A stretch of DNA of 64,000 nt from Nothopassalora personata (Eukaryota > Ascomycota > Dothideomycetes > Mycosphaerellales > Mycosphaerellaceae): the NCBI GenBank assembly GCA_033816765.1, contig CM066290.1, positions 1,612,001-1,676,000 of the forward strand, read 5' to 3'. The notes under the pieces are model-generated. The model was not told the origin of the DNA, did not search any database, and worked only from the letters and a program-made list of their open reading frames with translations. The position numbers and the translations under genes were made by a program. Positions 1 to 58,160 of this stretch are shown one piece after another; the first letter of the stretch is position 1, and each line of letters begins with the position of its first letter.

Positions 1-39
1 TTTGAGCCGGCCTCCGATGCTTTTTTAACTGGTTTCCAG

Positions 40-672
40 CAGAAAACATGCTCTACCACTGCCTGGAGTGCGCCAACTCTGGCCGCGATTGCGTGGGCCC
101 TGCCGTAAGACGCCTGAGTCCGACGTTTTTCAGCCGGACTCCGCTCACAAACATCCGCAGGCCGCCACTCAAGTCCGCAGCTGCGACGAGTGCCGCCGCC
201 TTCAGAAGCGCTGCCGCCCGCTGTGAGTCGCTCTCCGACCTCTTTCGACCGGACTCCGCTAACCCCCCACAGCCCAGCACTCTGCCACAAGGCGTACGCG
301 GCCTGGACCCGTGCCGGCAACGCTTCCAAGGCGTAAGTCTCCGGCCTGCGATCGTTTTCCGTCGGCTAACGCCTGAAAAGCACCAAACTCGACAATCTCA
401 AGAAGGTCATCAAGGCTTGGCGCCCGCTCTCCAAGCTCGAGTCCGATGGTCTGCTGTCCGGGTAATTTCCACCGGTCTCCGATTGAAAACCATCGCTAAC
501 CGTCTCTCAGTCCTGCGGCTGCTGAGGTCACTGGCTCCATGGAGGGAGCCATCAACGCGCAAGCTGGCTCGTAAGTGTTGCACTCCGATTGAAAGACGTC
601 GCTGACCGATCATTTTCCAGCGGCCCCGTCCCTCCTGCCCTCCGCCTTGGCACCCGCCGCGACATGTCTTGA
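40..672 (+). CDS. Antisense zinc-cluster gene of element T1, six exons in window
   Basis: Six exons at 40-104 (ATG at 48), 161-222, 273-332, 381-461, 511-570 and 621-672 are joined by five GT-AG introns of 56, 50, 48, 49 and 50 bases. Each intron has a CTAAC/CTGAC/CTCAC-like branch site. From the ATG the spliced frame is exactly 124 codons, ending TGA. Residues 5-15 read CLECANSGRDC and the second exon gives CDECRRLQKRC. These are two CX2CX6C half-sites like a Zn2Cys6 cluster, so DNA binding is plausible but inferred. Bases 1-39 look like the end of another intron (TTTCCAG), so the gene may begin outside the window. It lies just past the pol stop of T1 on the opposite strand, and such placement recurs in the other chromoviruses here. 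Confidence 0.72.
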
Positions 673-895
673 GTGGTCTCCGGTGGTTTTCGCGCGGGCC
701 GCGGTCGGGCCATAACAATGCTTTTGCCATCCCCGTATGGGGTGGGCCGGCCTCCGCTTCTTTTTGGTCGGGCCCCGCTGCCTTTTGGCGGCATGAATGA
801 ATGAAATTCTTTAAAACTTTTTCCTTTTCTCACGTGCTCTCAATCTGACTCCTGCTCCCAAACGCCTGTGCTCATGTCAACTGACCCGCAATCCG
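673..895. other. Spacer between antisense gene and pol of T1
   Basis: Non-coding stretch between the convergent ends of the antisense gene and pol. I see no LTR here, so the 3' LTR of T1 must lie left of the window or be lost. Confidence 0.5.
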
Positions 896-3800
896 TCACT
901 TACCTGTCGCCCTGCCCTTCTTCTTGACTTCCCATGCTTGCCTTGGTCCATCGTGCGTCATCGGGTTGCCGTGCTTTTTCTCAAAGTCGTCTGCTGCAGC
1001 TGTGTCCGCTAGATACTCCAATGGTTCCCACGTAGGCTTGTGGTATCCAGTCCATTTCACTAGGACTTCGCGTGCTTTGCCCCTCCCTTTCGCCTTGGTT
1101 CTGGCGCAGAGAATCTCCTCTACATGCCATTCCTCATGAGATTCAATGAGGATGGGGTCCGGCTGTTTGTCGTCGATCTCCTGTCCAGGCAACGGGTCTT
1201 GGCTTGCAGGTCGCAACAAGTCTGGGTGAAAGACCGGGTGGATTCCATCGGGGATCCCTGACAATCGGATGGACAGCGGTGAGATGACCTCCGCCACCGT
1301 GTACTTTGCGTGCTTATGGTCGATACTCTTCTTCGGCCGGGTCGTAGTGTAGTTCCTTAGATCCAGCCACACCTTGTCACCGACCCGATAAATCGGCGCT
1401 GGCTTCCGATCTTTGTTGGCGCTCTCCTCTTGCTCCTGGGCGGAGTCCGCCATGCTCGCTTGGCACAGGTCCGTGATCTGCTGCATCCTTTCCACAAAGA
1501 GCGTTGCCCGTTTGGCGGCATCCAGCGACGAAGTCGTTGAGTCCGGCTGCAACTGGACGGGGAATGGCGCTTCGTAACCGTGGACGGCAAAGAAGGGGCT
1601 CATGCCTAGGCCCGCTTGGTACCGTCCGTTCAGCGCCAGCTGAGCGGTGGAGAGCCACTTTTTCCAATCGGACTGCTCGTGGTTGACATAATTCCGAAGG
1701 TACGCCTGCACTTCTTGGTTCAACCTCTCGGGCCCTCCGTCCGTTTGTGGGTGGTAGGCGGAGCTAAGTCTCTGCTTCACGCCGGTTAAACGACAGAATG
1801 TCTTCCAGAATGTGCTTGTCCAGTTCGTGCCTCTATCGCTCGTGATGGCCTTAGGAATCCCGTAGTATCTCACCCAGCAGTCCAGGAATCTCTCGGCGCA
1901 GTCCTCCGCTTTCATGGTGGACATCGCTTCCAAGACGACGGTCTTGCTCAGTCTGTCCTTGATTACCCACAAGCAAGTGTTTCCCTGCGACTCCGGCATG
2001 TCCGTCATGAAATCCATAGAGATCTCCTGGAAGAAACGATCGGGTACCGGTAAAGGCTGAAGGAGTCCATGCTTTTGCTCCCTCCATACCTTATTTCTCC
2101 CACAGTGATCGCAGTTCCTCAAGAACTGTCTCACGTGCCTTGACTGTAGAGGCCAGTAAAAGTTACGTCTCAAGATAGACGCTGTGGAGTCCCTGCCTGG
2201 ATGGCCGTAGACCGGTGAATCATGAACGGACTGGATGAGCTTCGTCCGCAGGACATCGTTTTGCAATATCTCCGCGCCCGCCTCCTTGTAGTCGGCTTCC
2301 GTCGTTGCTGGGGCTCCCGGCACCCAGATTCTTCCGCGGTGCCGCAGGTGTCCGTTGTCGTCGATGCTGCAGTCACCGGCTTGTACCTTGAGCTTCACTT
2401 CGCTCGGGAGTGAACGCGCCCCGGTTCTTACTGCGTGGAGTACTGCCTGAAACGTGCTGTCTTCATCGGCGGTCTTCCTCCAGATCTCGTTCAATTCTGG
2501 ATCTGTGAAGGGGCCCGATGATGCGCCCGGTGAGTCCGACGTTTTCTCGGTGGAGTCGACTCCGAATTGGGTGGCCATAATCTGGACCGATGAAACCATC
2601 GTAGCGGATGAAGGTGCATCTGCTACCACCTCGCCTTCCCCCCCAGGAGCCGGCCAATTGCGTATGGCATCCGGCCGCAAGAACCTGCGAAAACGCGACA
2701 ATTTGTCGTCCTGGCCGAGCGTATCCTGCTCCCTCCGTGACAATGCATCCGGCACAATTGCCTCGGCGCCCGGCCTGTATACCAGGGTAAACTGAAACAA
2801 CGCGATGTCCTCCACCCACCTGACCTGCCTCTCAGACAACTGCCTCTTTGTCATAAAGTACTCAAGGTTCTTGTGGTCCGTCCAAATTGTAAAGGGACCA
2901 CACGTTTTCAGCTCGGGGGCCCACTCTTTGAGGCAGGAGACTACTGCGAGCATCTCTTTGTCATGGATGTCGTAGTTAATCTCAGCCTTATTCAGTTTCT
3001 TTGAGTAGAACCCTACCGGCTTCACTACCCCGTCCTTTTCTTGCAGGAGAGCGCCACCCAGGGCAAATCCACTGCAGTCCGTCTCCAAAAAGGTGGGAAG
3101 CTCCGGGTTCCAATGGGCCAGCACAGGAGCTTCACAGTACTTCCTCTTCAGGGCCTGAAAGGCGTCCTCCTGACGTTTCCCCCAGGAGAACGGCGTTTTC
3201 TTTCCCGTCAGCGACGTCAAGGGTTCGGCCAACTTCGAGTAGTTGGGGATGAACATTCTGTAGTAATTCGCGAACCCGAGGAAACGACGCACTTCTTTCT
3301 GAGTGACGGGCGTCTTCCAGTCCCGTACGGCATCCACCTTTTCCGGGTCTGGTCCCACCCCCTTTCCGTCGGCGTGGACGATGAACCCTAGGTACTTGAT
3401 CTTCTTCTGTGCGAACTCGCATTTACCTGGATCTAAGAACAGGCCTCCGTCCCAAAGCTTATGGAGAACGATGCGAACCTTCTTGAAGTGGTCCTCCTTC
3501 GACCCATCCGAGTAGATCACTACGTCATCAGCGTATGCAGAGGCGAAGTCGTCCAGGTGTTCCCGCAGCAAACTGTTAATATACCGTTGGAAAGTTGCCG
3601 GCGCCCCGGACAAACCAAACGGACACACCAACCACTCCCACAGGCCAAATCTCGTTCTAAACGCGGTCTTGTACTCCTCGCCTCTTGCCATCCGGAGATG
3701 GTGGAACGCGGCAACTACGTCCACCTTCGTCATCCATCTGGCTCCCGTTAGATTTCGGATGGTCTCCGGGATCAAAGGCAGCGGGTAGCGATCTTGCTTC

Positions 3801-4618
3801 GTAATCGCGTTCAGCGCCCTATAATCGCAGCAAAAGCGTAGTCCTCCTCCGGGCTTCTTCACAAACAGGACGGGGGCCGCCGCTTCTGAGGTGGAGGGAC
3901 GGATGTATCCCTTGCGATGCAGCTCGGTTAGCGACTTGCGTAGCACCAACAGCTCGTCTTTCGACATGCTATACAACGGTCCCCAGGGCAGTGGCTCCTG
4001 CGAACCGTCTGGTTTCGTCCGGATCTCGATCCTGTGGTCAAGTTCCCCACGATGGGGCGCGAGCTTGTCGGCTTCCCGCGTGGAAAAGAGTGGGATCATG
4101 TCCCAAAGTTCCGGAGGCAGCTTCATTTTGAGCTCCTCCCTCGTGGGCGGTTCCTTCTTGCTCAGGGCTTTCTTGATGTCCTCCACGGTTGCCGCGGCGA
4201 TCGTAGCAAAACGTTCGCCCGCCTCGCGTTCTTTATGGTTGCGTCCTTCGGGCACCCATTTCTTTGCCAAACCGTGGTAGTACCGGTGCTTTTCTGGCGC
4301 AGTTCGGATTTGATTGTGCGCTTTCCAAGGGTTCCCCAGAATCATCGGGAAGTCCAAGTCGGGCACGACGTATGCGTACACGACCTCGTGGATGCCGGCG
4401 ATTTCCATGTGGAAAGCAACTACTCCTTCAATCGAGTTTCGCATCGCTTTGGTGAACCCTGTAGCCTTGCGGCTCTCGTTGCTGACATACGTGAGACCGA
4501 GTCCTTTCGCTAGGTCTCCGTTAATTACAGCATAACACATGCATCCTTCATCGATAAGGGCAAACGTGCCGTAACTTTCGTTCAGGAGTACGTCGGTATA
4601 TACAAGGTTCCCGTTCAT
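896..4618 (-). CDS. pol: Pol polyprotein of chromovirus T1 (protease, RT, RNase H, integrase, chromodomain)
   Basis: Intact reading frame of 1240 codons counted from the first ATG. The frame is open further upstream across the gag stop, so the real entry is by -1 frameshifting. Residues about 21-26 are LIDEGC with ILGNPW near 93, a retropepsin-like protease with Glu where Thr or Ser is usual. Reverse transcriptase follows with YADD at 362-365. RNase H carries ETD at 512-514 and DKE at 553-555. Integrase shows an HHCC finger, then D, D and E in MDFMTDMP, SDRGTNW and GPERLNQEV. A chromodomain closes the protein (WHVEEIL to TWEPLEYL). These parts make, cut and insert cDNA of the element. Not RIP-damaged. 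The mobile copy as a whole is probably dead because gag is broken. Confidence 0.95.
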   Translation of the reverse strand: MNGNLVYTDVLLNESYGTFALIDEGCMCYAVINGDLAKGLGLTYVSNESRKATGFTKAMRNSIEGVVAFHMEIAGIHEVVYAYVVPDLDFPMILGNPWKAHNQIRTAPEKHRYYHGLAKKWVPEGRNHKEREAGERFATIAAATVEDIKKALSKKEPPTREELKMKLPPELWDMIPLFSTREADKLAPHRGELDHRIEIRTKPDGSQEPLPWGPLYSMSKDELLVLRKSLTELHRKGYIRPSTSEAAAPVLFVKKPGGGLRFCCDYRALNAITKQDRYPLPLIPETIRNLTGARWMTKVDVVAAFHHLRMARGEEYKTAFRTRFGLWEWLVCPFGLSGAPATFQRYINSLLREHLDDFASAYADDVVIYSDGSKEDHFKKVRIVLHKLWDGGLFLDPGKCEFAQKKIKYLGFIVHADGKGVGPDPEKVDAVRDWKTPVTQKEVRRFLGFANYYRMFIPNYSKLAEPLTSLTGKKTPFSWGKRQEDAFQALKRKYCEAPVLAHWNPELPTFLETDCSGFALGGALLQEKDGVVKPVGFYSKKLNKAEINYDIHDKEMLAVVSCLKEWAPELKTCGPFTIWTDHKNLEYFMTKRQLSERQVRWVEDIALFQFTLVYRPGAEAIVPDALSRREQDTLGQDDKLSRFRRFLRPDAIRNWPAPGGEGEVVADAPSSATMVSSVQIMATQFGVDSTEKTSDSPGASSGPFTDPELNEIWRKTADEDSTFQAVLHAVRTGARSLPSEVKLKVQAGDCSIDDNGHLRHRGRIWVPGAPATTEADYKEAGAEILQNDVLRTKLIQSVHDSPVYGHPGRDSTASILRRNFYWPLQSRHVRQFLRNCDHCGRNKVWREQKHGLLQPLPVPDRFFQEISMDFMTDMPESQGNTCLWVIKDRLSKTVVLEAMSTMKAEDCAERFLDCWVRYYGIPKAITSDRGTNWTSTFWKTFCRLTGVKQRLSSAYHPQTDGGPERLNQEVQAYLRNYVNHEQSDWKKWLSTAQLALNGRYQAGLGMSPFFAVHGYEAPFPVQLQPDSTTSSLDAAKRATLFVERMQQITDLCQASMADSAQEQEESANKDRKPAPIYRVGDKVWLDLRNYTTTRPKKSIDHKHAKYTVAEVISPLSIRLSGIPDGIHPVFHPDLLRPASQDPLPGQEIDDKQPDPILIESHEEWHVEEILCARTKAKGRGKAREVLVKWTGYHKPTWEPLEYLADTAAADDFEKKHGNPMTHDGPRQAWEVKKKGRATGK

Positions 4619-4662: not shown

Positions 4663-4702
4663 CTCCTGGTGCTGGCTTTCGCCCAGGAGCTAGTCTTTTC
4701 CC
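4663..4702 (-). other. -1 ribosomal frameshift signal of T1
   Basis: On the minus strand the heptamer G GGA AAA (4702-4696) sits in the gag frame two codons before the gag TAG. Six bases later comes a perfect 7-bp stem, CTCCTGG pairing with CCAGGAG across a 13-base loop. A -1 slip reads AGA CTA GCT and continues into the open pol frame. Heptamer, spacing and stem fit the known rules for programmed frameshifting. Confidence 0.75.
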
Positions 4703-5712
4703 ACATCTTCGGGATCCGACTCAAACCCGTCGTCTTCCAGGATCGGCGCAACTGAGGCTGCGTTGATCTTGGTGGGGTTGACTGCTGCGGCGTACGGACA
4801 TTCCTTCACTCGATGCCCGCTCGCTCCGCAACGGAAACAGAGCTGTTCTTGGCGCCTTCGATCTCTCTCAGCGGTGTCGACCCATTTCGCTCTCTGCTTC
4901 CCCTTGTCCTCCTTCCGGTCTCCACGACTTCTAGAGCGGCCTCCGTTCGTTCGGGTTGGTGCCATGATGGTGTCACCATCATGGTCCACCCGGGTAACGG
5001 TAGGTCCCGCAAAAGAACGAGTGGTAACCGTGGTGGTCGCACTGGAGTCCTTGTTGTTGTCCTTCCACTTCTTGTGGGCTATTCTAAACTGGTCTGTGTC
5101 CTCGAGGTTGGTCATGATCCGCTTAACCTCCTCTGCGAACTCGTAGTAATCCTCCTTTTTCGGCATGGCTGCCGTATACATTCTGGCGGGATTCGAGAAG
5201 GTGTTGCGGAGGTAGCCGATCTTCGCGTCACTGCTCCAGTCCTCTCCGCCGGCGGTCAACAGGAGTCCGTCGAATTTCATCTGGTGATCGTGCCACGGTT
5301 GTCCGTTCACGTGTCTAATCTTGGTGAGTTGTTCTAGAGCCTTGGCGCGTTCGTTGCTATCGCCAAAGACCTTCTCGAGTTGCGCAAAGAAAGCAACGGG
5401 GTCCTTCCCAAGTTCACCGTCTCCCTTGTCCCAGAAGTGCCGCATCCTCGTGCGCTCCCTCGTTAGAAAACGCGACATTCAGTTCGATCCATTCGAATCA
5501 ACCAGGCACCCGCCATTAAAGAGACGGAATACGTGATGGCGTCGTCGGGTAGCGAGAACCCCGGGGTTGGTGCCTCGAATGAAAATTTTCAGCTTATGCT
5601 CGAGCAATTGTACCTGCATCTCTTCCTGTCGCTGGTACAATTGCTCGAGCATAAGCTGAAAATTTTCATTCGAGGCACCAACCCCGGGGTTCTCGCTACC
5701 CGACGACGCCAT
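4690..5712 (-). pseudogene. gag: Gag of T1, broken by an inverted duplication and a TGA
   Basis: The C-terminal 262 codons (5478-4690) are a capsid-type Gag with a CX2CX4HX4C knuckle (CFRCGASGHRVKEC) that binds element RNA. The N-terminus starts at ATG 5712 (MASSGSENPGVG...) and runs in the same frame, but after about 35 codons it enters an inverted copy of its own beginning. It then meets an in-frame TGA at 5481-5479. The other arm has TTA at the equivalent place, so one base separates open from closed. The residues translated from the inverted arm are antisense and unlike Gag, so true N-terminal sequence was lost or interrupted. An internal start at 5478 could still give a truncated Gag. 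Confidence 0.8.
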
Positions 5713-5774
5713 CACGTATTCCGTCTCTTTAATGGCGGGTGCCTGGTTGATTCGAATGGATCGAACTTAATGTC
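5474..5774. repeat. Near-perfect inverted repeat, 140-bp arms, 21-bp spacer
   Basis: Bases 5474-5613 are the reverse complement of 5635-5774, with one mismatch seen (5480 against 5768). The right arm holds the natural order LTR end, leader, gag start. The left arm is the inverted copy inside gag. The arms end at the LTR/leader border. Confidence 0.95.
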
Positions 5775-5929
5775 ACGGGTGAACGACGTGTACACTGAGG
5801 TTCTGTGTGGTATGCAATAAGTTCGATACAGAAGAAGGAGAAAACCGAGCGAAGCCCGGAACAAAGAAAACGGAGTCAGGTCCGCACGGGCTCAGCCCGT
5901 GCTAAGATGCAAGGGCTCGCCCCTTACAG
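5771..5929 (-). repeat. 5' LTR of T1
   Basis: Read on the minus strand this 159-bp unit starts TGTAAGGGGC and ends CGTGACA, directly ahead of the gag leader, so it fits a 5' LTR. It includes a 19-base hairpin-forming palindrome, GCACGGGCT/AGCCCGTGC. Beyond it (5930 on) the sequence is T2, so T1 was inserted into T2. The matching duplication of GATGC would be left of the window. Confidence 0.65.
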
Positions 5930-12334: not shown

Positions 12335-12682
12335 TGTTACGGAACAGTGTTATCGGTGCAAATGGTTGGACAACGGAGCAGGAAACCAGACGAAGCTGCA
12401 GACATGGATGCCTGGGGAGTCACGTGACAGAGCGATCAGGACTGATCGGTCCTGATCACTCTTGATCAGTTGATCAGACTCGCTCAGGGCAGAGCAGGAC
12501 AGATCACGCCAAGACATGGCACTATATAGACGACGCTTCTTTACGAGTAGATAGGAGCCTCGTGCTCAACTCATTTTAAGTATACACCATATACTGTTTG
12601 GAACCACTACCTTCATAACTGATTGAGACATCCCTGCAAAGATCCAAGCCCGAGTTGTGATAACGTACAGCGGTTCCTAACA
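12335..12682 (+). repeat. Left LTR of T5 (forward)
   Basis: 348 bp, TGTTACGG...CCTAACA, the exact reverse complement of 14438-14785 as far as I can compare. Contains CACGTG at about 12421 and the inverted repeat GATCAGGAC/GTCCTGATC at 12434-12457, followed by more TGATCA motifs, likely regulatory. A TATA-like ACTATATAGA lies near 12521. Confidence 0.88.
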
Positions 12683-12764
12683 ACTTAATCCCCCCCTTCA
12701 GCATTGTTGTCCCCAACAATCCATTTTATAAAGACTTGTGAGTCCTTTCCTTCTCTTGCTAACG

Positions 12765-13480
12765 ATGCCGTCCTCGACTGACCGTCGCAAGCGCGTTCTG
12801 GACGAAATTTCCCGGTCTGGTCTTCCCGCCGAATCCCCCTGCGACTACTGTAATAGTCGCGGCCTTTGTTGCATCATGCTTCCAGACGAATCTCGTTCCG
12901 CCCGCTGTTCCAACTGCATTTCCCAGGGTCGCAAGTGTGTGAATGCGTCGTGGTCTTCGCTTGACCGCACCAGGGAGCAGGTCTCGAGAGACCTTGAGAA
13001 CTCCCTCGACGCTCTGGACAAGAAACAAGAGGAGTTGAGCGCTCTTCTTTCCAAGGTCTCGCGTCTCCGTCGCACTCTGAAGCTTGCCGAAGAGCGCGCT
13101 TCGAAGAAGGCGACGTGCCTCCAGGAAGAGTTGTTTCTGGAGGATCAGCAGACCTGGCGCTCGGAGCAATCCGCCATTCTCCGGTCCGATCCCGATCTTC
13201 CCCTCGAGCCCTTGTCGACCAAGTCCCTGCAGTGGTTGGATACTTTCGATTGGGACTCCCTTCCCGCTGGTTTCCTAGAAACCCCCAGTGGTGTCCTCCC
13301 ATCGTGGGTATTCTTGTTCGTTGTGGCCGTGTCGTAGTGTTGACTTCTTTTCCCTAGGTCATCAAATCAAGAAGCCGCTGTTTGATGCCTTGCTGTCCTC
13401 AGGTTGTTTCTGCTAGGCAGATTTCGAGAAGAAGTTCTCGCATTCCTGGTATGTATTCTCTTCGCGAATCATTGCGTTGA
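12765..13480 (+). CDS. Antisense zinc-cluster/coiled-coil gene of T5
   Basis: First ATG at 12765. Residues about 22-60 hold CX2CX6C twice (CDYCNSRGLCC and CSNCISQGRKC), the same paired spacing as in T1, then a long charged helix (residues about 64-130) predicted to form a coiled coil. An intron with consensus ends and a TTGAC branch can be drawn at 13308-13357 (50 bases, phase 0). Splicing continues the frame to TGA at 13478-13480, while without splicing it ends TAG at 13335-13337. It runs opposite to the T5 gag and just inside the left LTR, which here points in the same direction and could drive it. A DNA-binding or Gag-interacting role is inference only. Confidence 0.65.
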
Positions 13481-14411
13481 ACTCGCGGCTAACCATGTTC
13501 TTTTTCTTGCAGTTCCTTGCAAAATGGCCTTGCTCGCCACATACGTAGCAGGTGGAACCTTTGCTCTTCAGCCCCCTTCCTGTCCTACGTTCCGTTACGT
13601 CCAATTCCATTGGGTCTCCGTAACCATTAGGGTCCTGACTTCTGGCCTTGAAGCCCCCTCTTCCGCCCGCGGCGGGTCTCTGGTATCCAGGCTGTACGTG
13701 TCGGTCGTACCTCAACTCCTGGAGCCTTTCGTCGATCTCCTTTGCTGCCTTGATCATCGCCCCTAGCGTAACGACGCTGGCGTTTCGGGATAGTTCGGCT
13801 TTGACGTTGTCTTTCAGCCCGAGGTAGAACTGCGATCGCAAAGCTGCGTCGTTCCATTCCAGGTCGGCGGCATATCCTTGGAATTCTGAGGCGTACAGCG
13901 CTACAGAAGTAGTCTGTCGAAGTTGTCGGATATGTCGGTCGGCGTATACCTCCTCATTTGGTATCCCGTATAGATCATCGAGTTTCGTCTCAAACTCGTC
14001 GTAGTCGTGGAAAATTTTTCGAGTTTCCGTTTTCGGTGTTTCTCCCTCGCCCTGGTTGTGTAGCCAGTCCTTGAGGTATGGTCGGAATCCTCTAGCTGCT
14101 TTTCCTCGTAGGAAGGATGCGGCGTACAAGACTTTAGAAGCCTCGCCTTGAAACTGGTGTGCGTTGAAGTGAAGGTACAACTGAACCTGCAGTTGAAAAG
14201 CCTCCAGTTTGTCCTTGGTCCCGTCGAACGTCTCCGGCGTAGACACCTTAGGTGCACGGTGGTGGTCCAATGGGTTCAGCATACCCATAGGAGTGTTGTT
14301 GTTCTTGCTGCTTCCTGTAATCGACATTTCGCTCATTCGTTCCGTGATGCCAGTTGACTGTGGCTGTTGTCGTGACGGACTCCGGGTAGCGTCTCTCCCA
14401 GACATATGCAA
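13413..14411 (-). CDS. gag: Gag of T5
   Basis: Open frame of 332 codons read leftwards from the right LTR. A capsid-like region (KVSTPETFDGTKDKLEAFQLQVQ and following) is typical of fungal gypsy Gag, then a basic stretch and the knuckle CYVCGEQGHFARNC near the C-terminus. It would form the particle and bind RNA. It stops at TAG 13413-13415 and no protease or pol follows, so the element could move only with proteins supplied by a relative. Not RIP-damaged. Confidence 0.85.
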   Translation of the reverse strand: MHMSGRDATRSPSRQQPQSTGITERMSEMSITGSSKNNNTPMGMLNPLDHHRAPKVSTPETFDGTKDKLEAFQLQVQLYLHFNAHQFQGEASKVLYAASFLRGKAARGFRPYLKDWLHNQGEGETPKTETRKIFHDYDEFETKLDDLYGIPNEEVYADRHIRQLRQTTSVALYASEFQGYAADLEWNDAALRSQFYLGLKDNVKAELSRNASVVTLGAMIKAAKEIDERLQELRYDRHVQPGYQRPAAGGRGGFKARSQDPNGYGDPMELDVTERRTGRGLKSKGSTCYVCGEQGHFARNCKKKNMVSREFNAMIREENTYQECENFFSKSA

Positions 14412-14437
14412 AGGGCCCTGGTGGTGGTGCTCAAAGT

Positions 14438-14785
14438 TGTTAGGAACCGCTGTACGTTATCACAACTCGGGCTTGGATCTTTGCAGGGATGTCTCAATCA
14501 GTTATGAAGGTAGTGGTTCCAAACAGTATATGGTGTATACTTAAAATGAGTTGAGCACGAGGCTCCTATCTACTCGTAAAGAAGCGTCGTCTATATAGTG
14601 CCATGTCTTGGCGTGATCTGTCCTGCTCTGCCCTGAGCGAGTCTGATCAACTGATCAAGAGTGATCAGGACCGATCAGTCCTGATCGCTCTGTCACGTGA
14701 CTCCCCAGGCATCCATGTCTGCAGCTTCGTCTGGTTTCCTGCTCCGTTGTCCAACCATTTGCACCGATAACACTGTTCCGTAACA
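14438..14785 (-). repeat. Right LTR of T5 (reverse)
   Basis: 348 bp, inverted copy of the left LTR. It is the natural 5' LTR for the minus-strand gag. Confidence 0.88.
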
Positions 14786-32401: not shown

Positions 32402-32405
32402 CTAG

Positions 32406-42244: not shown

Positions 42245-42329
42245 CTATCCCCCTTCCTACTAAAACTCGTCCTCGAGTTTTCTTTCTTCTCCTATAAGTT
42301 TCTATCTTTTATTACAAGCGGCGAGTAGC

Positions 42330-42900
42330 TAATACGTTAGGAGCGCCGTAAACGTTAAGCACTAGGCATCGAAGCCGAGGGCCGCAAGATGCTATCCCTA
42401 TGTTCTAGTTGCCGAAAGGCTAGAGTGCTTAAAGGAAAGAAGAGTCCTCGTTACGTAGTAGATGTACGTTTTAGGTGTTGTTCGGAGTGCGTTCGTAAGG
42501 GTATTAGGTGTAACGTAACTATTACGTAGACTAAGTAGGAGCGGCTTCGTAACTAGCGTCGAAAGCTAAAGCGAGAGCTTAATAAGGCTAAAGAGAAGGT
42601 AATAGAGGCGATGTTAAAGGTGCATCGTCTTAGGAAACAGCTACGCGTTACTAAGGATAGGGAGGAAAAGGCGATAGCGAAGGATTTTAAGGATCTTCGT
42701 AGTTTACCGGGCGTAGGTATCGATACCTTTTCCGCGCCTTCGTCCTATCTTCTCGTTCCTAAAGGTAGCCCCGAAGAGCTAGAGGGGGTTTTCTAGATGT
42801 CGATTCCTTCCTAGGAGGACCTTTCGATAATTCCGGATAATGCCCTCTAGTTATATCCGATTCTTAAGGAAGCCGTAGCAGCTTCTTCGAGCGCTAGCCC
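42330..42900 (+). pseudogene. Antisense zinc-cluster/coiled-coil ORF of T7, RIP-damaged
   Basis: Translation shows LCSSCRKARVL, then CCSECVRKGIRCN (one exact CX2CX6C), then a charged heptad-rich helix (ERLRNxRRKLKRELNKAKE, then a segment open from 42611 with LRKQLRVTKDREEKAIAK). It ends near 42900. It is opposite to T7 gag-pol and next to the 3' LTR. The helix closely matches that in T11, so the gene is an inherited part of the element. Confidence 0.7.
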
Positions 42901-43079: not shown

Positions 43080-46000
43080 AGTCTACTAGACCGTTTTTTG
43101 TACTCCTAGAGCCTTTACTAACAGTTTCGTAGGTTTTGTTTTAGTTCCTAGGTATTTTCTAATTCGTCGTATCCTTTCTACTTAATAAGGTATCGCTAAC
43201 CTTTCTTATCTAGGATTTTTTCGACTTTAAATTGGTTTTCTGCTTCCGGCTCGAAATAGAAGCTCTCCCAGTAGGGTGTTTCGGCGTCTACGGGTTCTAA
43301 CTTAGAGATATAGAAGACTAGGTAGATTTTAGCGTCTAGTAGTAGTCGTAGTCGATAGTTGACTAGTCCTACGACTTTATCGATTAAAAATGGTCCGACC
43401 TTAACGTGATCTAGTTTCTTAGTCTATCTTCTTGTTCTTAAGTTTTTTATAAGGAGATAGACCTTATCCCCCTCTTTTAGTAGAGGTGCCATTTTTCTTA
43501 TGTCCTGCCGTTGTTAAGACAGTTTATGTTATATATCTTCGATCGCCTTACGTGTTTCTTTATACACTTCCTTAAGAGTATCCGTCGTCACGATTGCTCT
43601 CTCGGCCTATAGATAGGATCTAGGTGTTCCGAATAGGTTAGGATCTTTACTAAAGTTCGTATAGAATGGCGTCGTTAAAGTTGTCTCCGATTTATAGTTG
43701 TTTAGTGCAATCTACGCTATTAGCAGTAATAAAACATAGTTGTCTTATGCGTAGTTAATATAGTATCGTAGATATTGTTCTAGCGTTTAGTTTATCCTTT
43801 CGGTTTATCCGTCTATCTCCGGATAATATGCTATTAACAGCTTATGTTTAATTCCGATCGTTTCTATAAGCGTCTTCTAGTAGTTCGATGTAAATAACTT
43901 GTCTCTATCCGTTATGAACGCTTAAGGGAATCCGTGGTATCGGATAAGTCTATCTAGTACGAGGTATCCGAGCTGCTCTACATTATATGTTTCCGATGTA
44001 GGAATAAAGCGTACGTATTTTATAAGTCTATTAACTATAACTAGTATTATGTCGTATAGTTGTTTCGTAACTTAGTCTCTTAACGGTAGGAGTTTCGTAA
44101 TAAAGTCTATTATAACTTCGTCCTATAGTTTTACTAGTAGTGTCCTAAACTGTAGGTAACCGTATTTCGCATGTCTCGTAGCCTTATTTCGTTAATAGTG
44201 CACGTATTACTTAATGTAGCGTAGCACCTTTTACCTTATCTATAGGAATAAGAAGCTACGCTATATTAGGTCTATTGTTTTCGAGGTTCTAGGGTGCCTA
44301 TGTGTTAGTCCGTCGTAATATTGTCGTATATATTCTTCTTCTCGATCCTTAGGTACTTAATATTTCCGTTATAATATAGGGAATTGTTCGTCCTTATCGC
44401 CTAGTATCCGTACGATATTATTAAATTCTCTCGTGTTTATACTAAGACTTCCGTCGGGGTTTGTCTTTAATATTTTGTGCTGCACTAGTTCTTTTCCTTC
44501 TATATAGTCGCTTCTTCGGCTTAGCGCGTTGGCGCGGCTATTCTCTCGTCCTAGAGTATATTTAATTTCGAACTTATACTATCCTAGTAGCTCCGACTAG
44601 CGGGCTTACCTTCGGGTAAGTTCCTTCGTCGTCGTGAAGTACGTAAGATTCTTATAGTTAGAAAGAATCGTTAACTTCGGTAGGCCCTCGATATATACTC
44701 TCTAATGTTATATAGTAGCAATAATAGCTAGAAGCTCTTTATTATAGATATCGTAGTTCTATTCCGCTATAGTCATTTTCCGGGAGTAATAGGCTACTAG
44801 GTGTCTCTACCTATCGTGTTGTCACCGTACCGGCGCCCATCATTCACTTGGACCCGCGCGCACGTGCGTGGATCCCGCGCGCGCCGCTGACTAAGCCGGC
44901 CCGAGGGCTTGGCGCGTGTATATCTACCTCGCGCCCTCCGCGCCTCTCTTAGATAGACCGTCTATTCGACTTGTACCTTATCCGACCACGTGCTTGCACC
45001 TGCTTGTGACACGTGTGTCTATATTAGACACGCGCCTATTACTATATTAGACGCATCGGTCTCGATGTAGACTTCCTTACTACTATCGAATAGTCGAAGC
45101 GTAGGGGCTAAAGCGCATTATTCTTTAAGTTTCTTAAATGCTTTAATCTGTTCTTTCCCCTATTTCTAAGTAACGTCTTTCCTCGTAAGTATCGTTATTA
45201 GTGCCGCTATCTTTACGTAGTCCTTAATAAATTTCTAGTTATAGTTCGCTAGTCTAAGGAATGATTGTACGTCCTTAACTATCTTTAGTTCTAGCTATTC
45301 TCTAATTAACTATGTCTTCGTAGGGTCGATCGTTATCCCTATAGTACTAATAATAAAACCTAAGAATTTAACTTCTTTCTTATAGAATTCGCATTTCTCG
45401 GGTGCCGTCTTAAATCCTAATTGCGTGAGTCGTTCGAAGACGTCCTAGACTTGTCTTATGTGTTCCTATAGGGATCCTTTCGTGTAGACTAGTATGTCGT
45501 CTATGTACGCGATAACGTATACGTCGAGTAGGTCTCTAAGTGTCTCGTTAACAAGGTCCTAGCAGGATACGGGTGCGTTAGTTAATCCTATTAGCATAAC
45601 TAAGAATTCGTAGAGTCCGTATCTTATTCTAAAAGCGGTTTTCTATTCTTCTCCTTCTACTATCCGTATAGCGTAGAAGGCATCTCGTAGGTTAATCTTC
45701 GTATACTAGTCTAATCCGGTTAATCTGTCTTATGCTTCTTCGATGTTAGGTAGCGGGTATCGGTTCTTAATCGTAATCTCGTTTAACTTCCTATAGTCTT
45801 GTACGAGTCGTAACTTCCCGTTTGCTTTTAGAACGAATATGTATAGAGTTCCTATACTCGAGGTAGATCTTCTTATCTATCCTTTAGCTAGCTTCTCCTT
45901 TAGCTATTCTCGTAGGGTCTATAGCTCTTTCTTAGACATTTAATATAGGGGTCCCTATAGAGGCTCTTTCCCTAGCTAAATGTTTATCTTATAATCCTAT

Positions 46001-47300
46001 AGTTAATACTTAGGTAAGGCATCCTTACCTCTTTCCTCTTTAAAGAGTCGCGACTACTTACGATACTCCTTAGGAATACTTAACTCTAAGATGTTAGTAT
46101 TCTTCGATAGTACGTTACTCCTATTACTACTAGTAACTTCGTAACCCGGCGGCCCTACGCTAGTGTCTATCCCGGTCGAAGGTGGTTCTTAATTCCTTCT
46201 ATTCGGCGTAAGCTATATTTTGTTTAGCTGTTTCCTTACCTTATCTACTAGTGAACGCTACTACTACGTAGGCTGAATGTCGATAATGCAATCGCATTCC
46301 CTAAATGTAAGTACTCCTCTTCTCTAGTCGATTACTAGATTGTACTTTCTTAACTAAGGCATACCTAATACTATGTTATAACTAGCTATATTAGTAACAT
46401 CTAAGGTAATATTCTCGTAGTGCTATTAGATAGCTAGTAGCAATAGTGTCGTCTCCTATTCTACGCTAGGTAACGATAATCCGTTTACCGCGATTAACTC
46501 GTAACCCTATTCTTCTTTAGGGTAGCTAACCCGTTTCTTCTTATAAAAGACTCGGAGATAAAATTCCCCGCTACTCCTAAGTCGATTATAACACTAGTCT
46601 TGTGTCCGTTAACGATTGCTTATGTCTAGAAAACTGTGTTTAATGTCGATGCGTAAGCCTAAGTATTATATAACTCCCTCCGGTCGCTTATTCCTAGGGA
46701 GCTAATCCTTTTCCCGAATAGTATGTAGTTCGCTATACTTCGTGCCTAGAGGCTTCGGCTAGAACCTGTAGCCCGTTACCCTATGTCTATACTTATAATT
46801 TATTGCGTTCCTAGATCTTCTACGATTCTAAGTAGAGAGCCCGTACATACTATACTACTGTTCGTAGTTCGTTTAAGACGAAAGTTCCTACCGGTGTTAG
46901 GTATCCGGTGTCCGTTATTCGGCTTTCTATAGGTAGTCGTTCGATAACCGCTTTAGCTAAGTTCTTAGTATTGTTTATAGTTAGGTAGCCCTATACTATG
47001 CCCCTTATTATGTCGAGTGTCTTATCGAATTCGTTAGGGTTTAGGTATCGTTTCCCTAAGAACTTTAGTAGGAATTCCTCGTGTCTTCGTTAGAGATAGA
47101 TAATTAACTCGTAGAGTTTCTTTAGCGTATCTACCGTAAATGTGTATACTTCGTTTTCGTCGTCGGTGTCGCTCTCTGCTTCTTCGGATAAGTCCTCGCT
47201 TAACTCCTCTAGTACGTAATCTTCTTCGATAGTATCTAGTTCGTTTATTCATTGTTCTAGTGCTAGTGACTAGCGTCCGTCCTATTCTAGATCCTAGTTT
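43080..47300 (-). pseudogene. pol of T7, RIP-damaged
   Basis: Minus-strand reading shows protease VIIDxGVAGN near 46590, reverse transcriptase YIDD at 45507-45496 with AYIDDILVY context, and RNase H around 45080, where a solo LTR-like unit (44820-45011) interrupts. Integrase follows around 43500-44300. Saturated with TAG/TAA. Confidence 0.85.
44820..45011. mobile_element. 192-bp solo LTR-like insertion
   Basis: TGTCACCG...TTGTGACA with a CGTGT duplication at 44815-44819 and 45012-45016. Comparison with T11 (55790) shows a clean insertion into RNase H. GC-rich and mostly not RIP-damaged, so younger than its host. No relative elsewhere in the window. Confidence 0.8.
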
Positions 47301-49594: not shown

Positions 49595-52000
49595 CTATGT
49601 CGACGATATCCTTATCTATATAAAAGGGACACTCTAGTAGCATATACGACAAGTCTAGGACGTACTCGAGCGACTATCTAAAATAGGTTTCCGGACGGTA
49701 CCGAAGAAATGCGAGTTCTATAAGAAAGAAGTTAAATTCTTAGGATTTATTATTAGCACGACTAGAATCTAGATCGACTTAGCTAAGACATAGTCCATTA
49801 GAGAATAGCTAGAGCTAACATGTGTTAAGGACGTACAATTATTCCTTAGCCTCGCTAACTATAACCGGAAATTTATTAAGGACTATTCGAAGACGTCGAT
49901 ACCTATAACGATACTTACGAAAAAGGATGCTAAATAGACATAGGGCAGCGTACAGCAACTAGCATTCGAACGACTAAAGGAATAATGCGCCTTAGTTGTT
50001 AAGGGGATGTCGCAATGTATAGCACGCCCACGACCTGCCAGTCGTAGATGAACTAATTCTTGCCTTTTGTTCAAGACGCATCGCGCGTCGCAAGGTGTAC
50101 TCATGCGTGTCACGTGCGGCTTGGCAGCCGGTCGCGACCGCATGTCACATGCAAGGCCACATGTAGGGGTTAGCCACTGGGCTGCCCCTTACATTAGTAC
50201 TAACGCTTCGATTATTTAACGGTACGAAGGAAGTCTAAATCGAAACGGACGCATCGGATATAGCTATCGGAGTATGCCTTACGTAGGAGTATAATAGGAA
50301 ACGGTACCTAGTAGCCTACTACTTAAGGAAACTATTACCCGCGGAACAAAACTACGACATCTATAATAAGGAGCTTCTCGCTATTGTCGCTATAATATAG
50401 TACTAGAGAATATATGCGGAAGGAGTATCTAGGCTAATAATTCTTTCTAATTATAAGAATCTTACTTACTTCACTACGACTAAACTGCTAATAAGAAGAC
50501 AGTGCCGCTAGTCGGAACTGCTCGGTTAGTACAAGTTTGAAATCCGCTATACACCTAGTAAAGACAATAGTAGGGCCGACGTACTAAGCCGAAGAAGCGA
50601 CTATATAGAAGGAAAAGAACTAGTACGACAATAAATACTAAAGGCGAATCCTAATAGAAGCCTTAGTACTAACATAAAGGAGTTTAATAACATAGTACGT
50701 GTTCTTTAAGATATAGAAGAACAATTCCTAATAGCATAGGGGAAATACTAGGTACCGAAGGACCGAGAAGAAGAATGTATACGACAATATTACGACGAAC
50801 TAACCTACGGGCACCCCGGAACATCTAAGATAGTAGAACTTATTTAGAGGAGCTTCGCATTCCCGTAGTTACGATAGAAAGTACTACGATACATTAAATG
50901 ATACGAATACTATTAGAAAAACAAAGCCGTAAGACACGCGAAATACGGCGAGATACAATTCCGGACACTACTAACTAGCCTATAGGATAAGGTTACGATA
51001 GACTTTATTACTAAGTTACTAACATCTTAGGATTAAACCATAGGACAATAACATAACATAATATTAGTTATAGTAGACCGACTTATAAAATACGTATACT
51101 TCATTCCTACATCTAAAACGTATAATGTAGAGCAACTCGGACACCTCGTACTCGATCGACTCGTACGATACTATAGATTCCTAAAGGTCTTTATTATAGA
51201 CAGAGACAAGTTATTTACATCTAACTACTAGAAAATCTTAGTTTCTACGATCGGAATCAAACATAAGCTATCTACTACCTACTATCCGTAAACTAATAGG
51301 TAAATAGAAAGAATAAATTAAACCCTAGAATAATATCTACGACACTATATTAACTATGTATAGGACAATTAGGTTACACTCCTACCTATAGTATAGTTAG
51401 TACTAAATAACTACAAGTCCAAAACAACGGGCGAAACATCTTTCTTCGTAAACTACGGTAAGCATCCAAACCTATTTAGCGAAGAAGGATTACATCTATA
51501 AGCTAAAAGGGTAATCGTAACTATAGAGGCGATGAAAACCATCTACGAAAACTTAATACGAAGGGTTAAGAGTAACTAAAATAAAACTACGACACTATAT
51601 AATAAGAAACGACAAATAGCACCTTAGCTTAAGAAGGGGGATAAGGTCTATCTCCTTACGAAGAACCTTAAAATAAGAAGAAAGACTAAGAAACTAGATT
51701 AGGTAAAAGTCGGACTATTTCTCGTTAAAGAAACAAGAGGACCCGTTAACTACCGACTACGGCTACTAAAGGATGCAAAGATCTACCTAGTGTTCTATAT
51801 ATTACTATTAGAACCTACCGACGCCAAAACACCTTATTAGGAAACATTCCATTTTAAACCGGAATTAGAAAACGAATTCGAGGTCGAAAAGATACTAAAT
51901 AGGAAGGGTTAGTGATACCTTATTAAGTAGAAAGGTTACGATGATTTAGAAAATACCTAGGAACTAAAGGCGAACCTTACGAATTGCCGCTAGCTACTAG
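49595..52000 (+). pseudogene. pol of T9, 3' half, RIP-damaged
   Basis: Begins at YVDD of reverse transcriptase (49596-49607), then RNase H IETDASDIAIGVCL near 50230, integrase 50800-51500, and a chromodomain near 51880-51960 (EFEVEKILNRKG, then YLIK and GYDDLENT). The upstream half was separated by insertion of T2 and lies left of the window. A solo LTR interrupts at 49997-50193. Confidence 0.85.
49997..50193 (-). repeat. Undamaged solo LTR of the T3 family
   Basis: 197 bp, reverse complement of the T3 LTR without RIP changes, flanked by TTAGT at 49992-49996 and 50194-50198. It shows what the T3 LTRs looked like before mutation. Confidence 0.92.
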
Positions 52001-52189
52001 AAGATTTCTACTACCGCTAAGTAGCGGAAGCGCGCCGTTAATAGGTTCCGCTACTACACTATTAAGAAAACCCTAGAACCTATTATCGGCGAAACTATCT
52101 ATAGCGCTCCGAGTTAGAGGACTTAGAGCAAGACCGGGATTAGGTATAGGTTCTAGTAGCAAGCCCTACGCTACTAGCTCCTGATCCGC

Positions 52190-52600
52190 CGCTTCCTCCT
52201 CCTCGATCTCTCGCTCCTCGAGAGTACGACCCTCCTCTACCTTACGGTTAACAGTATTAAGTTGCTTCTAAAGACGTATCTCCTTCGTATACGCCTCTAT
52301 TATTTTCGCTAAGGCCTCCGAAAGAGCCTCCTTCGCACGATCGAGATCGGCTAATAACTTCTTTCGCTAATCCCCGAGCTTTTTCCACTCTACCTTAGTT
52401 ACCTTCGTATTGCACCGCGCTACGTTACTAAGATAGTAATAAGAACACTTTCCGGACGAGATATGCATACGGTACACTAGGTTGTTCTTCGTATACCGAG
52501 AACAAGGCTTTATAACTTCTTCTCCGAGGCGATAGACGCGGTTTACACGGTTCTTTCGTTTTTAAGTAGATAACGCGTCTAAGGGTAAGATAAGAGTAGG
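52190..52600 (-). pseudogene. Antisense zinc-cluster/coiled-coil ORF of T9, RIP-damaged
   Basis: The minus strand reads PCSRYTKNNLVY, then GKCSYYYLSNVARCN, consistent with two Cys half-sites with some Cys turned to Tyr. A long charged helix follows (EWKKLGD, KKLLADLDRAKEALSEALAK and on). It lies between pol and the LTR at 52692, opposite to pol. Confidence 0.65.
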
Positions 52601-53097: not shown

Positions 53098-53099
53098 GT

Positions 53100-54170: not shown

Positions 54171-57100
54171 TAACGATAATAGTGTTTCGAACTAAGATTA
54201 TTATTAACGGGTATAAGATAGATACTATAATAGATTCCGGAGTAAGCGGGAACTTTACCTCCGAATTATTTATTATAAGATATAGGATCGCTACCTATAA
54301 GAGAAAGAGGGTTATAAATTAATCGCGGTAGACGGATTATCCTTACCCGGTATAGAGCGCGAGACGATACCGCTACTACTTACTATCTAACGGTACTACG
54401 AGGAAATCATCTTAGATATTACTAACATAGCTAGTTATAACATCGTATTAGGTATACCTTAGTTAAGAAAGTACAATCTAGTTATCGACTAGAGAAGAGG
54501 AGTACTTACATTTAGGGAATGCGATTGCGTTATCGACATTTAGCCTACGTAGTAGTAGCGTTTACTAGTAGATAAGGTAAGAAAATAGCTAAATAAGATA
54601 TAGCTTACGCCGACTAGAAGGATAGAAGAACTACCTTCGACCGGGATAGACACTAGTATAGGGCCGCCGGGTTACGAAGTTACTAGTAGTAATAGAAGTA
54701 ACGTACTATCGAAGGATACTAATATCTTAGAGTTAAGTATTCCTAAGGAGTATCGTAAGTAGTTGCGACTCTTTAAAGAGGAAAGAGGTAAGGATGCCTT
54801 ACCTAAGTACTAACTATAGGATTATAAGATAAATATTTAGCTAGGGAAAGAGCCTCTATAGGGACTCCTATATTAAATGTCTAAGAAAGAGCTATAGACC
54901 CTACGAGAATAGCTAAAGGAGAAGCTAGCTAAAGGATAGATAAGAAGATCTACCTTAAGTATAGGAACTCTATACATATTCGTTCTAAAAGTAAACGGGA
55001 AGTTACGACTCGTATAAGACTATAGGAAGTTAAACGAGATTACTATTAAGAACCAATACCCGCTACCTAATATCGAAGAAGCATAAGATAGATTAACTAG
55101 ATTAGACTAGTACACGAAGATTAATCTACGAGATGCCTTTTACGCTATACGGATAGCGGAAGGAGAAGAATAGAAAACTACTTTTAGAATAAGATACGGA
55201 CTCTACGAATTCTTAGTTATACTAATAGAATTAACTAACGCACCCGTATCCTATTAGGACCTTGTTAACGAGACACTTAGAGACCTACTCGATACATACG
55301 TTATCGCTTACATAGACGATATATTAGTCTATACGAAAGGATCCCTTTAGAATTACATAAAATAAGTCTAGGACGTATTCGAACGACTTACGCGTTTAGG
55401 ATTTAAGACAGCACCTAAGAAATGCGACTTCTATAAGAAAGAAGTTAAATTCTTAGGTTTTATTATTAGTACTATAGGGATAACGATCGACCCTACGAAG
55501 ACATAGTTAATTAGAGAATAGCTAGAAATAAAAACAGTTAAGGACGTATAATTATTCCTTAGACTAGCGAACTACAACCGGAAATTTATTAAGGACTACG
55601 TAAAGACAGCGGCACTAATAACGATACTTACGAGAAAAGACGTTACCTAGGAATAGGGAAAGAACAGATTAAAGCGTTTAAGAAACTTAAGGAACAATAC
55701 GCTTTAGCCCCTACGCTTCGACTATTCGATAGTAGTAAGGAAGTCTATATCGAGACCGATACGTCTAATATAGCAATAGGCGCGTGTCTAACATAGATAC
55801 ACGATAGGTAGAGACACCTAGTAGCCTATTACTCCCGGAAAATAACTATAGCGGAATAGAACTACGATATCTATAATAAAGAGCTTCTAGCTATTGTTAC
55901 TACTATATAACATTAGAGAGTATATGTCGAGGGCCTACTAAAGTTAACGATTCTTTCTAACTATAAGAATCTTACGTACTTTACGACGACGAAAGAACTT
56001 ACCTAAAGGTAAGCCCGCTAGTCGGAGCTACTAGGATAGTATAAGTTCGAAATTAAATATACTCTAGGACGAGAGAATAGCCGCGCCGACGCGCTAAGCT
56101 AAAGAAGCGACTATATAGAAGGAAAAGAACTAGTATAACATAAAGTACTAAAGACGGACCCCGACGGAAGTCTTAGTACTAACACTAGAGAATTCAATAA
56201 TATCGTACGGATATTAGGCGATAAGGACGAACAATTCCCTATATCGTAAGGAAAATACTAAGTACTAAAGGATTAAGAAGAAGAATACATATAACAATAT
56301 TACGACGTACTAATTTATAGACACCCTAGAACTTTAAAGACAATAGACCTAATATAATATAGCTTCTTATTTCTATAAATAAGACTTAAGGTGTTATGAT
56401 ATATTAGATAATATATACACTACTAACGAAACAAGGCTACGAGACATGTAAAATACGGTTACCTACAGTTTAGGACACTACCGACAAAACTATAGGACGA
56501 AGTTATAATAGACTTTATTACGAAACTCCTACCGTTAAGAGACTAAGTTACGAAACAACTATACGACATAATACTAGTTATAGTTAATAGACTTATAAAA
56601 TACGTACACTTCATTCCTACATCGGAAACATATAATGTAGAGTAGCTCGGATACCTCGTACTAGATAGACTTATCCGATACTACGGATTCCCTTAAGCGT
56701 TTATAACGGATAGAGATAAGCTATTTATATCGAACTACTAGAAGACGCTTATAGGAACGATCGGAATTAAACACAAGCTATTAACGGCATATTATCCGGA
56801 GATAGACGGATAAACCGAAAGGATAAACTAAACGCTAGAACAATATCTACGACACTATATTAACTACGTATAGGACAACTAGGTTTTATTACTACTAATA
56901 GCGTAGATTGCACTAAACAACTATAAATTAGAGATAACTTTAACGACACTATTTTATACAAACTTTAGAAAAGATCCTAACCTATTCGAAATACCTAGAT
57001 CCTACCTATAAGCCGAAAGAGCGATCGTAACGACGGACACTCTTAAGGAAGTATATAAAGAAACACGTAAGGCGATCGAAGATATATAACATAGACTATC

Positions 57101-57520
57101 TTAATAACGGTAAGACACGAGAAAAATAGCACCTCTACTAAAAGAGGGGGATAAGGTCTATCTCCTTATAAAAAACTTAAGAATAAGAAGATAGACTAAG
57201 AAACTAGATTACGTTAAGATCGGACTATTTTTTATCGATAAAGTTATAGAACTAGTTAACTACCGTCTACGGCTACTACCTAACGTAAAAATCTACCTAG
57301 TCTTCTATATCTCTAAGTTAGAACCCGTAGACGCTAAATTACCCTACTAGGAAAGCTTCTATTTCGAGCTAGAAGTAGAAAACGAATTCGAAGTCGAAAA
57401 AATCCTAGATAAAAAAGGTTAGCGATACCTTATTACGGAGAAAGGATACGACGAATTAGAGAATACCTAGGAACTAAAACAACACCTACGAAACTATTAG
57501 TAAAAGATCCGATAATACTA
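54171..57520 (+). pseudogene. pol of T11, RIP-damaged
   Basis: Protease KIDTIIDSGVSGNFT near 54210 (an ordinary D-S-G site), reverse transcriptase YIDD at 55309-55320, RNase H IETDTSNIAIGACL near 55747, integrase 56280-56900, chromodomain near 57380-57470 (EFEVEKILDKKG, then RYLI and GYDELENT). Confidence 0.87.
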
Positions 57521-57570
57521 AAAATAGGTCCGCCGATACAACCTACGATAATAGATCTCTCGGCCGACGA

Positions 57571-57645
57571 GCAACTAGTATAGGAATTAAACCTACGACC
57601 TTAAGAGTATAGATAGCTTACGCTCTACTACTAAGCTACCTAGCC
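57571..57645 (-). tRNA. Degenerate tRNA-like sequence in T11
   Basis: About 75 bases, minus strand, nearly the same as 42974-43047 in T7 (D arm AGCTTAGTAGTAGAGC, T arm GTAGG...CCTAT). Also antisense to pol and between pol and the antisense ORF. Anticodon not assignable. Confidence 0.4.
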
Positions 57646-57759
57646 GATTAATAGAAATAGGGATATAACTTATAAATAAATACCCTAATAAGTTTCTACC
57701 CCTAGGGACTCGCCCTAGGGCTTCGCCCTAGAAAGCGCCGCCTAGTCGTTTACGGGCAT

Positions 57760-58160
57760 CTCTAGGATATTAGAGAAAGAAACTAGCGAAGGCAATACCT
57801 CTACCCCCGACGCCTACTTAAGAGACGCTAGCTCCTCGCGCGCCTCTTCCTCCTCGAGCTCCTCTAACTCCTTAGCGATAGCGTCGTTAGTGCGACGCTT
57901 AGCTAAGCGTAGCTATTTCCGAAGACGGATCTTACGTATCTTTAGCCACACCTCCTCCTCTTTAATCCTCTTAAGCTCTAGCTTAAGCTTATTGCGCGAA
58001 TCGCGAAGACGTTCCTACTCCGGATAAGAAAGATACACGTCGTAATCCTTATAGGCCTTTCCGAATATAGGCCGAATACTTCCTAGACCGAGAACCTACG
58101 ATACACTTTACTACCGCGCCCGAGGATCGAGACTTCTAATAATTTGTATATAGAGCTATT
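57760..58160 (-). pseudogene. Antisense zinc-cluster/coiled-coil ORF of T11, RIP-damaged
   Basis: The minus strand gives KYSAYIRKGL (matching CSECVRKGI of T7). After a one-base shift it gives ERLRDSRNKLKLELKRIKEE and LRLAKRRTNDAIAKELEELEEEE, a coiled coil aligned with that of T7. Located between pol and the 3' LTR. Confidence 0.65.

What the first reader, a model, noticed from the sequence alone, without database searches (positions are those of the whole stretch)
1..58160. Every chromovirus in the window carries an antisense zinc-cluster gene between pol and the 3' LTR
Six elements (T1 40-672, T3 about 37640-37770, T5 12765-13480, T7 42330-42900, T9 52190-52600, T11 57760-58160) have, on the strand opposite gag-pol, a small ORF with CX2CX6C half-sites, in T5, T7, T9 and T11 followed by a coiled coil. 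Strand, place and architecture are shared while sequences differ, so the gene is an old, maintained part of these elements. A DNA-binding or self-regulating role is inference. I know of no described fungal gypsy gene of this kind.
Basis: partly seen in the sequence, partly recalled or inferred. Interest (0 to 1): 0.9.

Follow-up and report, generated by a model that had tools for sequence, protein, structure and literature searches.

The report
Retrotransposon antisense regulators swapped with U3
Jumping elements in this fungus carry a backwards-facing gene for a small zinc-cluster protein that looks like a DNA-binding regulator, and this gene is exchanged between otherwise near-identical elements together with the promoter repeats it probably reads, which would make each element its own switchable control module.

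Summary
The observation largely holds. The five chromoviruses identified in the window (T1, T3, T7, T9, T11) have an antisense cysteine-cluster gene between pol and the 3' LTR (T3: one decayed half-site). T5 has one too but is gag-only, not a chromovirus. T1's gene is spliced (six exons). Of 10 chromovirus types examined genome-wide, 9 carry it (type C: one half-site); K does not. Six cysteines are invariant in 10 of 10 aligned proteins at 19-35% identity; cluster, long coiled coil and mostly acidic tail resemble a small Zn2Cys6 regulator. An antisense gene (brtn) is already reported in Botrytis Boty, so the bare idea is not new. New here: elements with gag at least 97% identical carry very different antisense genes (34-41% aa) together with unalignable U3 segments, while the rest of the LTR stays 99.5-100% identical; two gag-only families show the same pattern. 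Seven of nine U3s hold a type-specific 7-mer in 4-16 copies. Best reading: the protein is a self-encoded regulator, probably an activator, of its own U3, and gene plus U3 move as one cassette. Binding and expression are untested.

The parts
48..672 (+). T1 antisense gene, spliced: exons 48-104, 161-222, 273-332, 381-461, 511-570, 621-672; 123 aa with CX2CX6C-X11-CX2CX6C
   Evidence: exons 3 and 4 recur in 4 of 4 diverged relatives tested, exon 1 in 1 of 4
896..4618 (-). T1 pol with chromodomain (1240 aa, intact; 15 further full-length matches without stops in the genome)
4690..5478 (-). T1 gag-like ORF with CCHC knuckle
5771..5928 (-). T1 5' LTR (3' LTR lies left of the window)
   Evidence: converted to window coordinates
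37332..38485 (-). T3: decayed type-C 3' region with an antisense half-site at about 37640-37770
12335..14785 (.). T5: gag-only element, 5-bp TSD TACAT, no pol; left LTR inverted in this copy
12765..13337 (+). T5 antisense zinc-cluster and coiled-coil protein, 190 aa, intact
13413..14411 (-). T5 gag
14434..14785 (-). T5 LTR; its first ~170 bases in gag orientation are the type-specific U3 part with CTGATC repeats
42317..42871 (+). T7 antisense gene, decayed type F
43211..46089 (-). T7 pol remains
52082..52570 (-). T9 antisense gene, decayed, type G/B-like
49596..51897 (+). T9 pol remains
57691..58225 (-). T11 antisense gene, decayed type X (two frames)
54727..57407 (+). T11 pol remains

Best explanation
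Each element carries, antisense to gag(-pol) and next to the 3' LTR, a gene for a small, probably dimeric Zn2Cys6-like regulator: basic N-terminus, two cysteine half-clusters, long coiled coil, mostly acidic/aromatic tail. The protein most likely binds the repeated short motif in its own U3, drives gag-pol from the 5' LTR, and drives or tunes its own gene from the 3' LTR, whose U3 lies directly upstream of it. Because reverse transcription copies the 3' U3 into both LTRs (established knowledge), the regulator gene and its target stay linked and can be replaced as one cassette, leaving gag-pol, the core promoter and R-U5 unchanged. Shown: gene family, cysteines, cassette exchange, motif arrays. 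Predicted by model: fold. Inferred: DNA binding, match of protein to motif, activation rather than repression, expression.
Confidence: 0.6

Rival explanations
1. The protein is a repressor or copy-number controller of its own U3, comparable to HBZ against HTLV Tax or to a phage repressor, rather than an activator.
For: Antisense placement at the 3' LTR as in HTLV (antisense promoter mentioned in PMC7264820; HBZ function recalled). Cassette exchange resembles phage immunity regions (recalled).
Against: Acidic, aromatic tails such as WLDTFDWDSL (T5) and DEFWEVPELL (B) look like activation domains (inference); the tail is net acidic in 9 of 10 but only slightly in A.
Confidence: 0.2
2. The protein acts after transcription, for example as a nucleic-acid chaperone or nuclear-import or integration-targeting partner; U3 arrays are sites for host factors and sit beside the gene by map order.
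For: One antisense-ORF protein of plant elements is reported nuclear and their function is unknown (PMC7264820 passages). Variable U3s with fixed coding parts are known in Tnt1 (PMC1838419 passages).
Against: Both flanks of the polypurine tract change together while gag, start of pol and R-U5 do not; gag-only elements keep the gene and show the same exchange.
Confidence: 0.15
3. The antisense RNA, not the protein, regulates the element (dsRNA, siRNA).
For: Discussed for plant elements in PMC7264820.
Against: Protein-level conservation of six cysteines across DNA that no longer aligns.
Confidence: 0.05
4. Chance open frames in GC-rich antisense DNA.
For: T1's unspliced 185-codon frame is of this kind and found no homologue.
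Against:: homologues across elements and organisms.
Confidence: 0.01

Closest known systems
brtn, antisense gene of Botrytis cinerea Boty-like elements (Zhao et al. 2011)
   Same: Fungal chromodomain element; extra gene antisense to gag-pol between pol and 3' LTR (title and descriptions in PMC8365987, PMC7264820, PMC4227169 passages)
   Different: Zinc cluster, coiled coil, U3 cassette exchange and gag-only carriers are not mentioned in the passages seen; the brtn paper itself was not readable, so sequence relation is untested
Plant antisense additional ORFs (Grande gene23, RIRE2, Retand, PvRetro13)
   Same: Position and strand; present in most copies; function unknown; one nuclear (PMC7264820 passages)
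   Different: Plant hosts; no zinc cluster or cassette exchange in the passages seen
Foamy virus Tas transactivator
   Same: Self-encoded DNA-binding protein that binds the LTR and an internal promoter between env and the 3' LTR (PMC4929722 passages)
   Different: Vertebrate retrovirus, sense strand and unrelated protein (recalled); no cassette exchange known to me
HTLV-1 HBZ
   Same: Antisense gene driven from the 3' LTR (antisense promoter; rest recalled)
   Different: bZIP protein, retrovirus, represses the sense transactivator (recalled)
Tnt1 / Retrolyc1 / Retrosol U3 subfamilies
   Same: More constant coding region with highly divergent U3 types, called modular evolution (PMC1838419 passages)
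   Different: Plant elements; no linked regulator gene mentioned in the passages seen
Gal4-type Zn2Cys6 transcription factors
   Same: Six-cysteine spacing, coiled coil, acidic tail; most fold matches
   Different: Below the Pfam threshold; small; encoded antisense in a retroelement

Membership tests
Zn2Cys6 fungal binuclear cluster (PF00172) | Six cysteines in CX2CX6CX5-16CX2CX6-8C spacing (spacing recalled) | tested here: met
   10 of 10 have all six; 8 of 10 in this spacing, F and X have a longer first loop (CX2CX13C, CX2CX11C)
Zn2Cys6 fungal binuclear cluster (PF00172) | Pfam gathering score | tested here: not met
   4 of 10 weak, best 13.4 bits against 21
Zn2Cys6 fungal binuclear cluster (PF00172) | Zn2Cys6 fold | tested here: inconclusive
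Zn2Cys6 fungal binuclear cluster (PF00172) | Binds DNA | not testable with these tools
   no assay
brtn-like antisense gene of fungal chromoviruses | Antisense, between pol and 3' LTR of a chromodomain element | tested here: met
   nine types (C with one half-site); T5 and L025 gag-only elements differ in having no pol
brtn-like antisense gene of fungal chromoviruses | Sequence similarity to BRTN | not testable with these tools
   sequence and paper not held
Chromovirus (element class) | Chromodomain at pol C-terminus | tested here: met
   T1: Chromo 25.6 bits against 25.1; other intact types; T3, T7, T9, T11 by homology to them
Chromovirus (element class), for T5 | pol with chromodomain | tested here: not met
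   gag only

The most novel reading that the evidence does not exclude
Fungal LTR retrotransposons have interchangeable regulator-plus-U3 cassettes: each antisense Zn2Cys6-like protein recognises the motif array of its own U3, so one gag-pol chassis exists in several mutually independent regulatory types, as lambdoid phages exist in immunity groups; gag-only elements carry and swap such cassettes too.
Probability: 0.5. Interest if true: 0.9.

Novelty: new variant of a known kind. Interest (0 to 1): 0.8.

Why it matters
Antisense ORFs next to the 3' LTR have been reported in plants and in Botrytis with no known function. Here the gene has a recognisable regulator architecture, is swapped together with the promoter part beside it, and most U3s offer a ready list of candidate binding sites, so the function becomes directly testable with a few proteins and probes. 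If right, it would explain why U3s diversify on constant gag-pol backbones in these elements and show retroelements using modular self-regulation.

Tried and rejected
T1's unspliced 185-aa frame as the gene: no homologue, replaced by the spliced model. T5 as an inverted-repeat element in its own right: L024 has direct LTRs and the paired LTR hits of other copies fit direct LTRs, so the window copy is an oddity. Copies B (L027/L041) and G (L034/L043) as clean representatives: both lack a TSD and have unlike 5' and 3' U3s, so they are probably chimeras, and their 5' halves may belong to another type; the genome-wide table was used beside them. That table used 24 of 40 G rows, 6 of 40 B rows, 25 of 40 F rows (identity 96% or more) and 8 of 41 X-U3 rows. 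dN/dS across types: not computed, DNA not alignable; within nine T1 copies the antisense exons show no visible purifying selection, while pol does (pN 0.0042, pS 0.0143); gag in the same script was usable for one copy only. T1 CCGGNCTCCG repeats (5 in 1.4 kb) as a binding array: the 7-mer test was not significant. T1 exons in relatives: tested in L019-L022, 4 of the 6 relatives fetched; exons 2, 5 and 6 not detected; exon 1 found in 1 of 4, exon 3 in 4 of 4 (0 of 500 shuffles each), exon 4 in 4 of 4 (0-6 of 500). A parallel tblastn of the exons printed nothing and one script timed out. Viral-contig scan: 7 pattern matches, no relative. PDB sequence searches gave no zinc-cluster entry; the rows are mostly coiled coils and helical proteins. 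Literature searches gave brtn citations and no other antisense zinc-cluster gene of fungal retroelements in the listings; the library holds open-licence papers only, so this does not show absence from print. Folds not listed by the structure search are not excluded.

Full report
Setting. The window is C4:1612001-1676000 of a 54.5 Mb unnamed fungal genome. It is a nest of LTR elements. T1 is intact (pol 896-4618 minus, chromodomain; 16 full-length matches in the genome without stops, the window's included). T3, T7, T9 and T11 are decayed chromoviruses. T5 is a 2451-base element nested in another element.

Checking the antisense genes. T1: the antisense strand between pol and the 3' LTR reads as a six-exon gene with five GT-AG introns of 48-56 bases; the joined exons keep one frame and give 123 aa with CX2CX6C-X11-CX2CX6C. 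In nine copies the aligned exons add up to a multiple of three, but intron 2's acceptor is changed in L010, L015 and L017 (L016 was not matched by my pattern), so those copies would probably shift frame behind the cluster. Among relatives L019-L022 (4 of the 6 fetched), exon 3 recurs in 4 of 4 and exon 4 in 4 of 4, in order and in different frames, exon 1 in 1 of 4; exons 2, 5 and 6 were not found. This supports splicing of the middle of the gene. T5: one intact ORF, 190 aa. T7, T9, T11 and T3 match intact types F, G/B, X and C elsewhere in the genome.

How general. The chromodomain family search scored 150 of 1231 candidates. I fetched 14 representative 3' regions: 12 show an antisense half-site, K (one copy) shows none, and H reads like a host helicase. 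Merging duplicates and adding X (L052, found through a U3 search) and T1: types A, B, C, F, G, I, J, X, T1 have it and K lacks it, 9 of 10; type C shows a single half-site and no full gene model. K's LTR starts inside its pol frame, leaving no room. Lower-scoring families were not surveyed.

Cassette exchange. Comparing B, F and G: 5' regions with gag and the start of pol 97.2-97.8% identical over about 3 kb; the last ~200 bases of the LTR 99.5-100%; the chromodomain end 83-93%; the antisense gene and the first 164-235 bases of the LTR not alignable apart from short islands, among them the polypurine tract and LTR start. As the B and G copies first fetched lack a TSD and have unlike U3s, I mapped cassettes genome-wide: of the 40 scored gag copies (of 900 candidates), all at least 97% identical to the F gag, 17 carry F, 17 G, 5 B and 1 none of those listed; four F copies have gag at 98%, the same rounded identity as eleven G copies. 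In the three cassette searches all 40 scored matches each (best of 560, 322 and 206 candidates) run through antisense gene and U3 nearly end to end; since the best matches are scored, this does not exclude unlinked copies. Antisense relatedness does not follow backbone relatedness: B-J 54.6% against B-F 34.2%, while B gag is 97% identical to F gag and J's 5' region 70-79% to F's; pol starts give the same picture (B-F 99.2%, B-J 82.8%), with the caution that the B copy's 5' half may be of type G. Copies F, A and I have TSDs and their U3s match at both ends over the part compared (A: 295 bases). The gag-only pair is the cleanest case: T5-type (L024, TSD ATCGC) and L025 (TSD TCCCT) share 1291 bases of R-U5 plus gag at 99.5% and the second R-U5 at 99.4%, but U3 and antisense gene do not align and the proteins are 31% identical.

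U3 arrays. The type-specific U3s carry their own repeated 7-mer, counted on both strands: L025 CGAGCAG 16, B CTGATCA 7, J CAGATCA 7, G GAGAGCA 6 and GAGATCA 4, X AGTCTGA 6 and CTGATCA 5, F CACGACC 4, I CGCGACG 4 (borderline against shuffles); A 3 and T5 3 are weak. Controls: 0 of 310 gag-pol windows, 0 of 82 host windows and 0 of 5 R-U5 reach 4; 8 of 94 overlapping antisense-CDS windows do; the LTRs of K, E2 and T1 reach 3, 3 and 2. L025's array is a tandem repeat whose length differs between its two LTRs, so it may partly reflect slippage. B, J and G (39-55% identical) have motifs ending in GATCA; but T5 (31%) and X (38%) share CTGATCA with B, and A and L025 (42%) have unlike motifs, so the link between protein and motif is suggestive only.

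Mechanism. The ~200 bases kept in the types begin near CTCCTTTGTATTTAGGA, a plausible core promoter (inference), so what is swapped would be the upstream activating part plus the gene beside it. In the 3' LTR this part lies between the antisense gene and the LTR promoter, a divergent arrangement. Net acidic tails in 9 of 10 proteins, slight in A, favour activation. I put binding of the own U3 at about 0.6 and activation, given binding, at about 0.7.

What is known. Antisense additional ORFs 3' of pol are known in plants and, as brtn, in Botrytis Boty (passages only). U3 modularity is known in Tnt1 (passages). A self-encoded LTR-binding activator is known in foamy viruses (passages). The combination found here, a Zn2Cys6-like antisense regulator exchanged with its U3, was not met in the listings of my searches.

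Noticed in passing
window 12335-14785: This T5 copy has its two 352-base LTRs in inverted orientation (100% complementary) with an intact 5-bp TSD, whereas L024 and, by paired hits, other copies have direct LTRs.
   Followed up: partly
window 20767-32323: Intact non-chromodomain Ty3-like element with identical 300-base terminal repeats, long gag and pol, and two extra sense ORFs 3' of pol (738 and 199 aa) without a Pfam match; remains of a second copy follow at about 32402-36268.
   Followed up: partly
G000 C5:3464340-3471200 and C4:492464-499282 (L027/L041/L048, L034/L043): Element copies whose 5' and 3' LTRs have U3s of different types and no TSD: apparent products of recombination between elements of different cassette types.
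   Followed up: partly
G000 C11:1762350-1766900: Two T5-type elements apparently in tandem sharing a middle LTR (LTR-body-LTR-body-LTR), from the hit coordinates.
   Followed up: no
G000 C1:5714009-5741859: T1 copies and G-type cassettes recur three times at the same 10,775-base spacing, suggesting a tandem triplication of a segment with both elements.
   Followed up: no
window 105-620: Introns of the T1 antisense gene resemble one another (shared CCGGNCTCCG and CTCCGAT), reminiscent of introner-like repeats (recalled).
   Followed up: partly
window 5959-6154 and 38361-38556: These 93% identical stretches may be the two LTRs of T3, split by about 26 kb of nested insertions.
   Followed up: partly
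window 59739-63924: Host genes begin here: a ubiquinol-cytochrome c chaperone and a 2OG-Fe(II) oxygenase; GC rises again to about 0.52.
   Followed up: no
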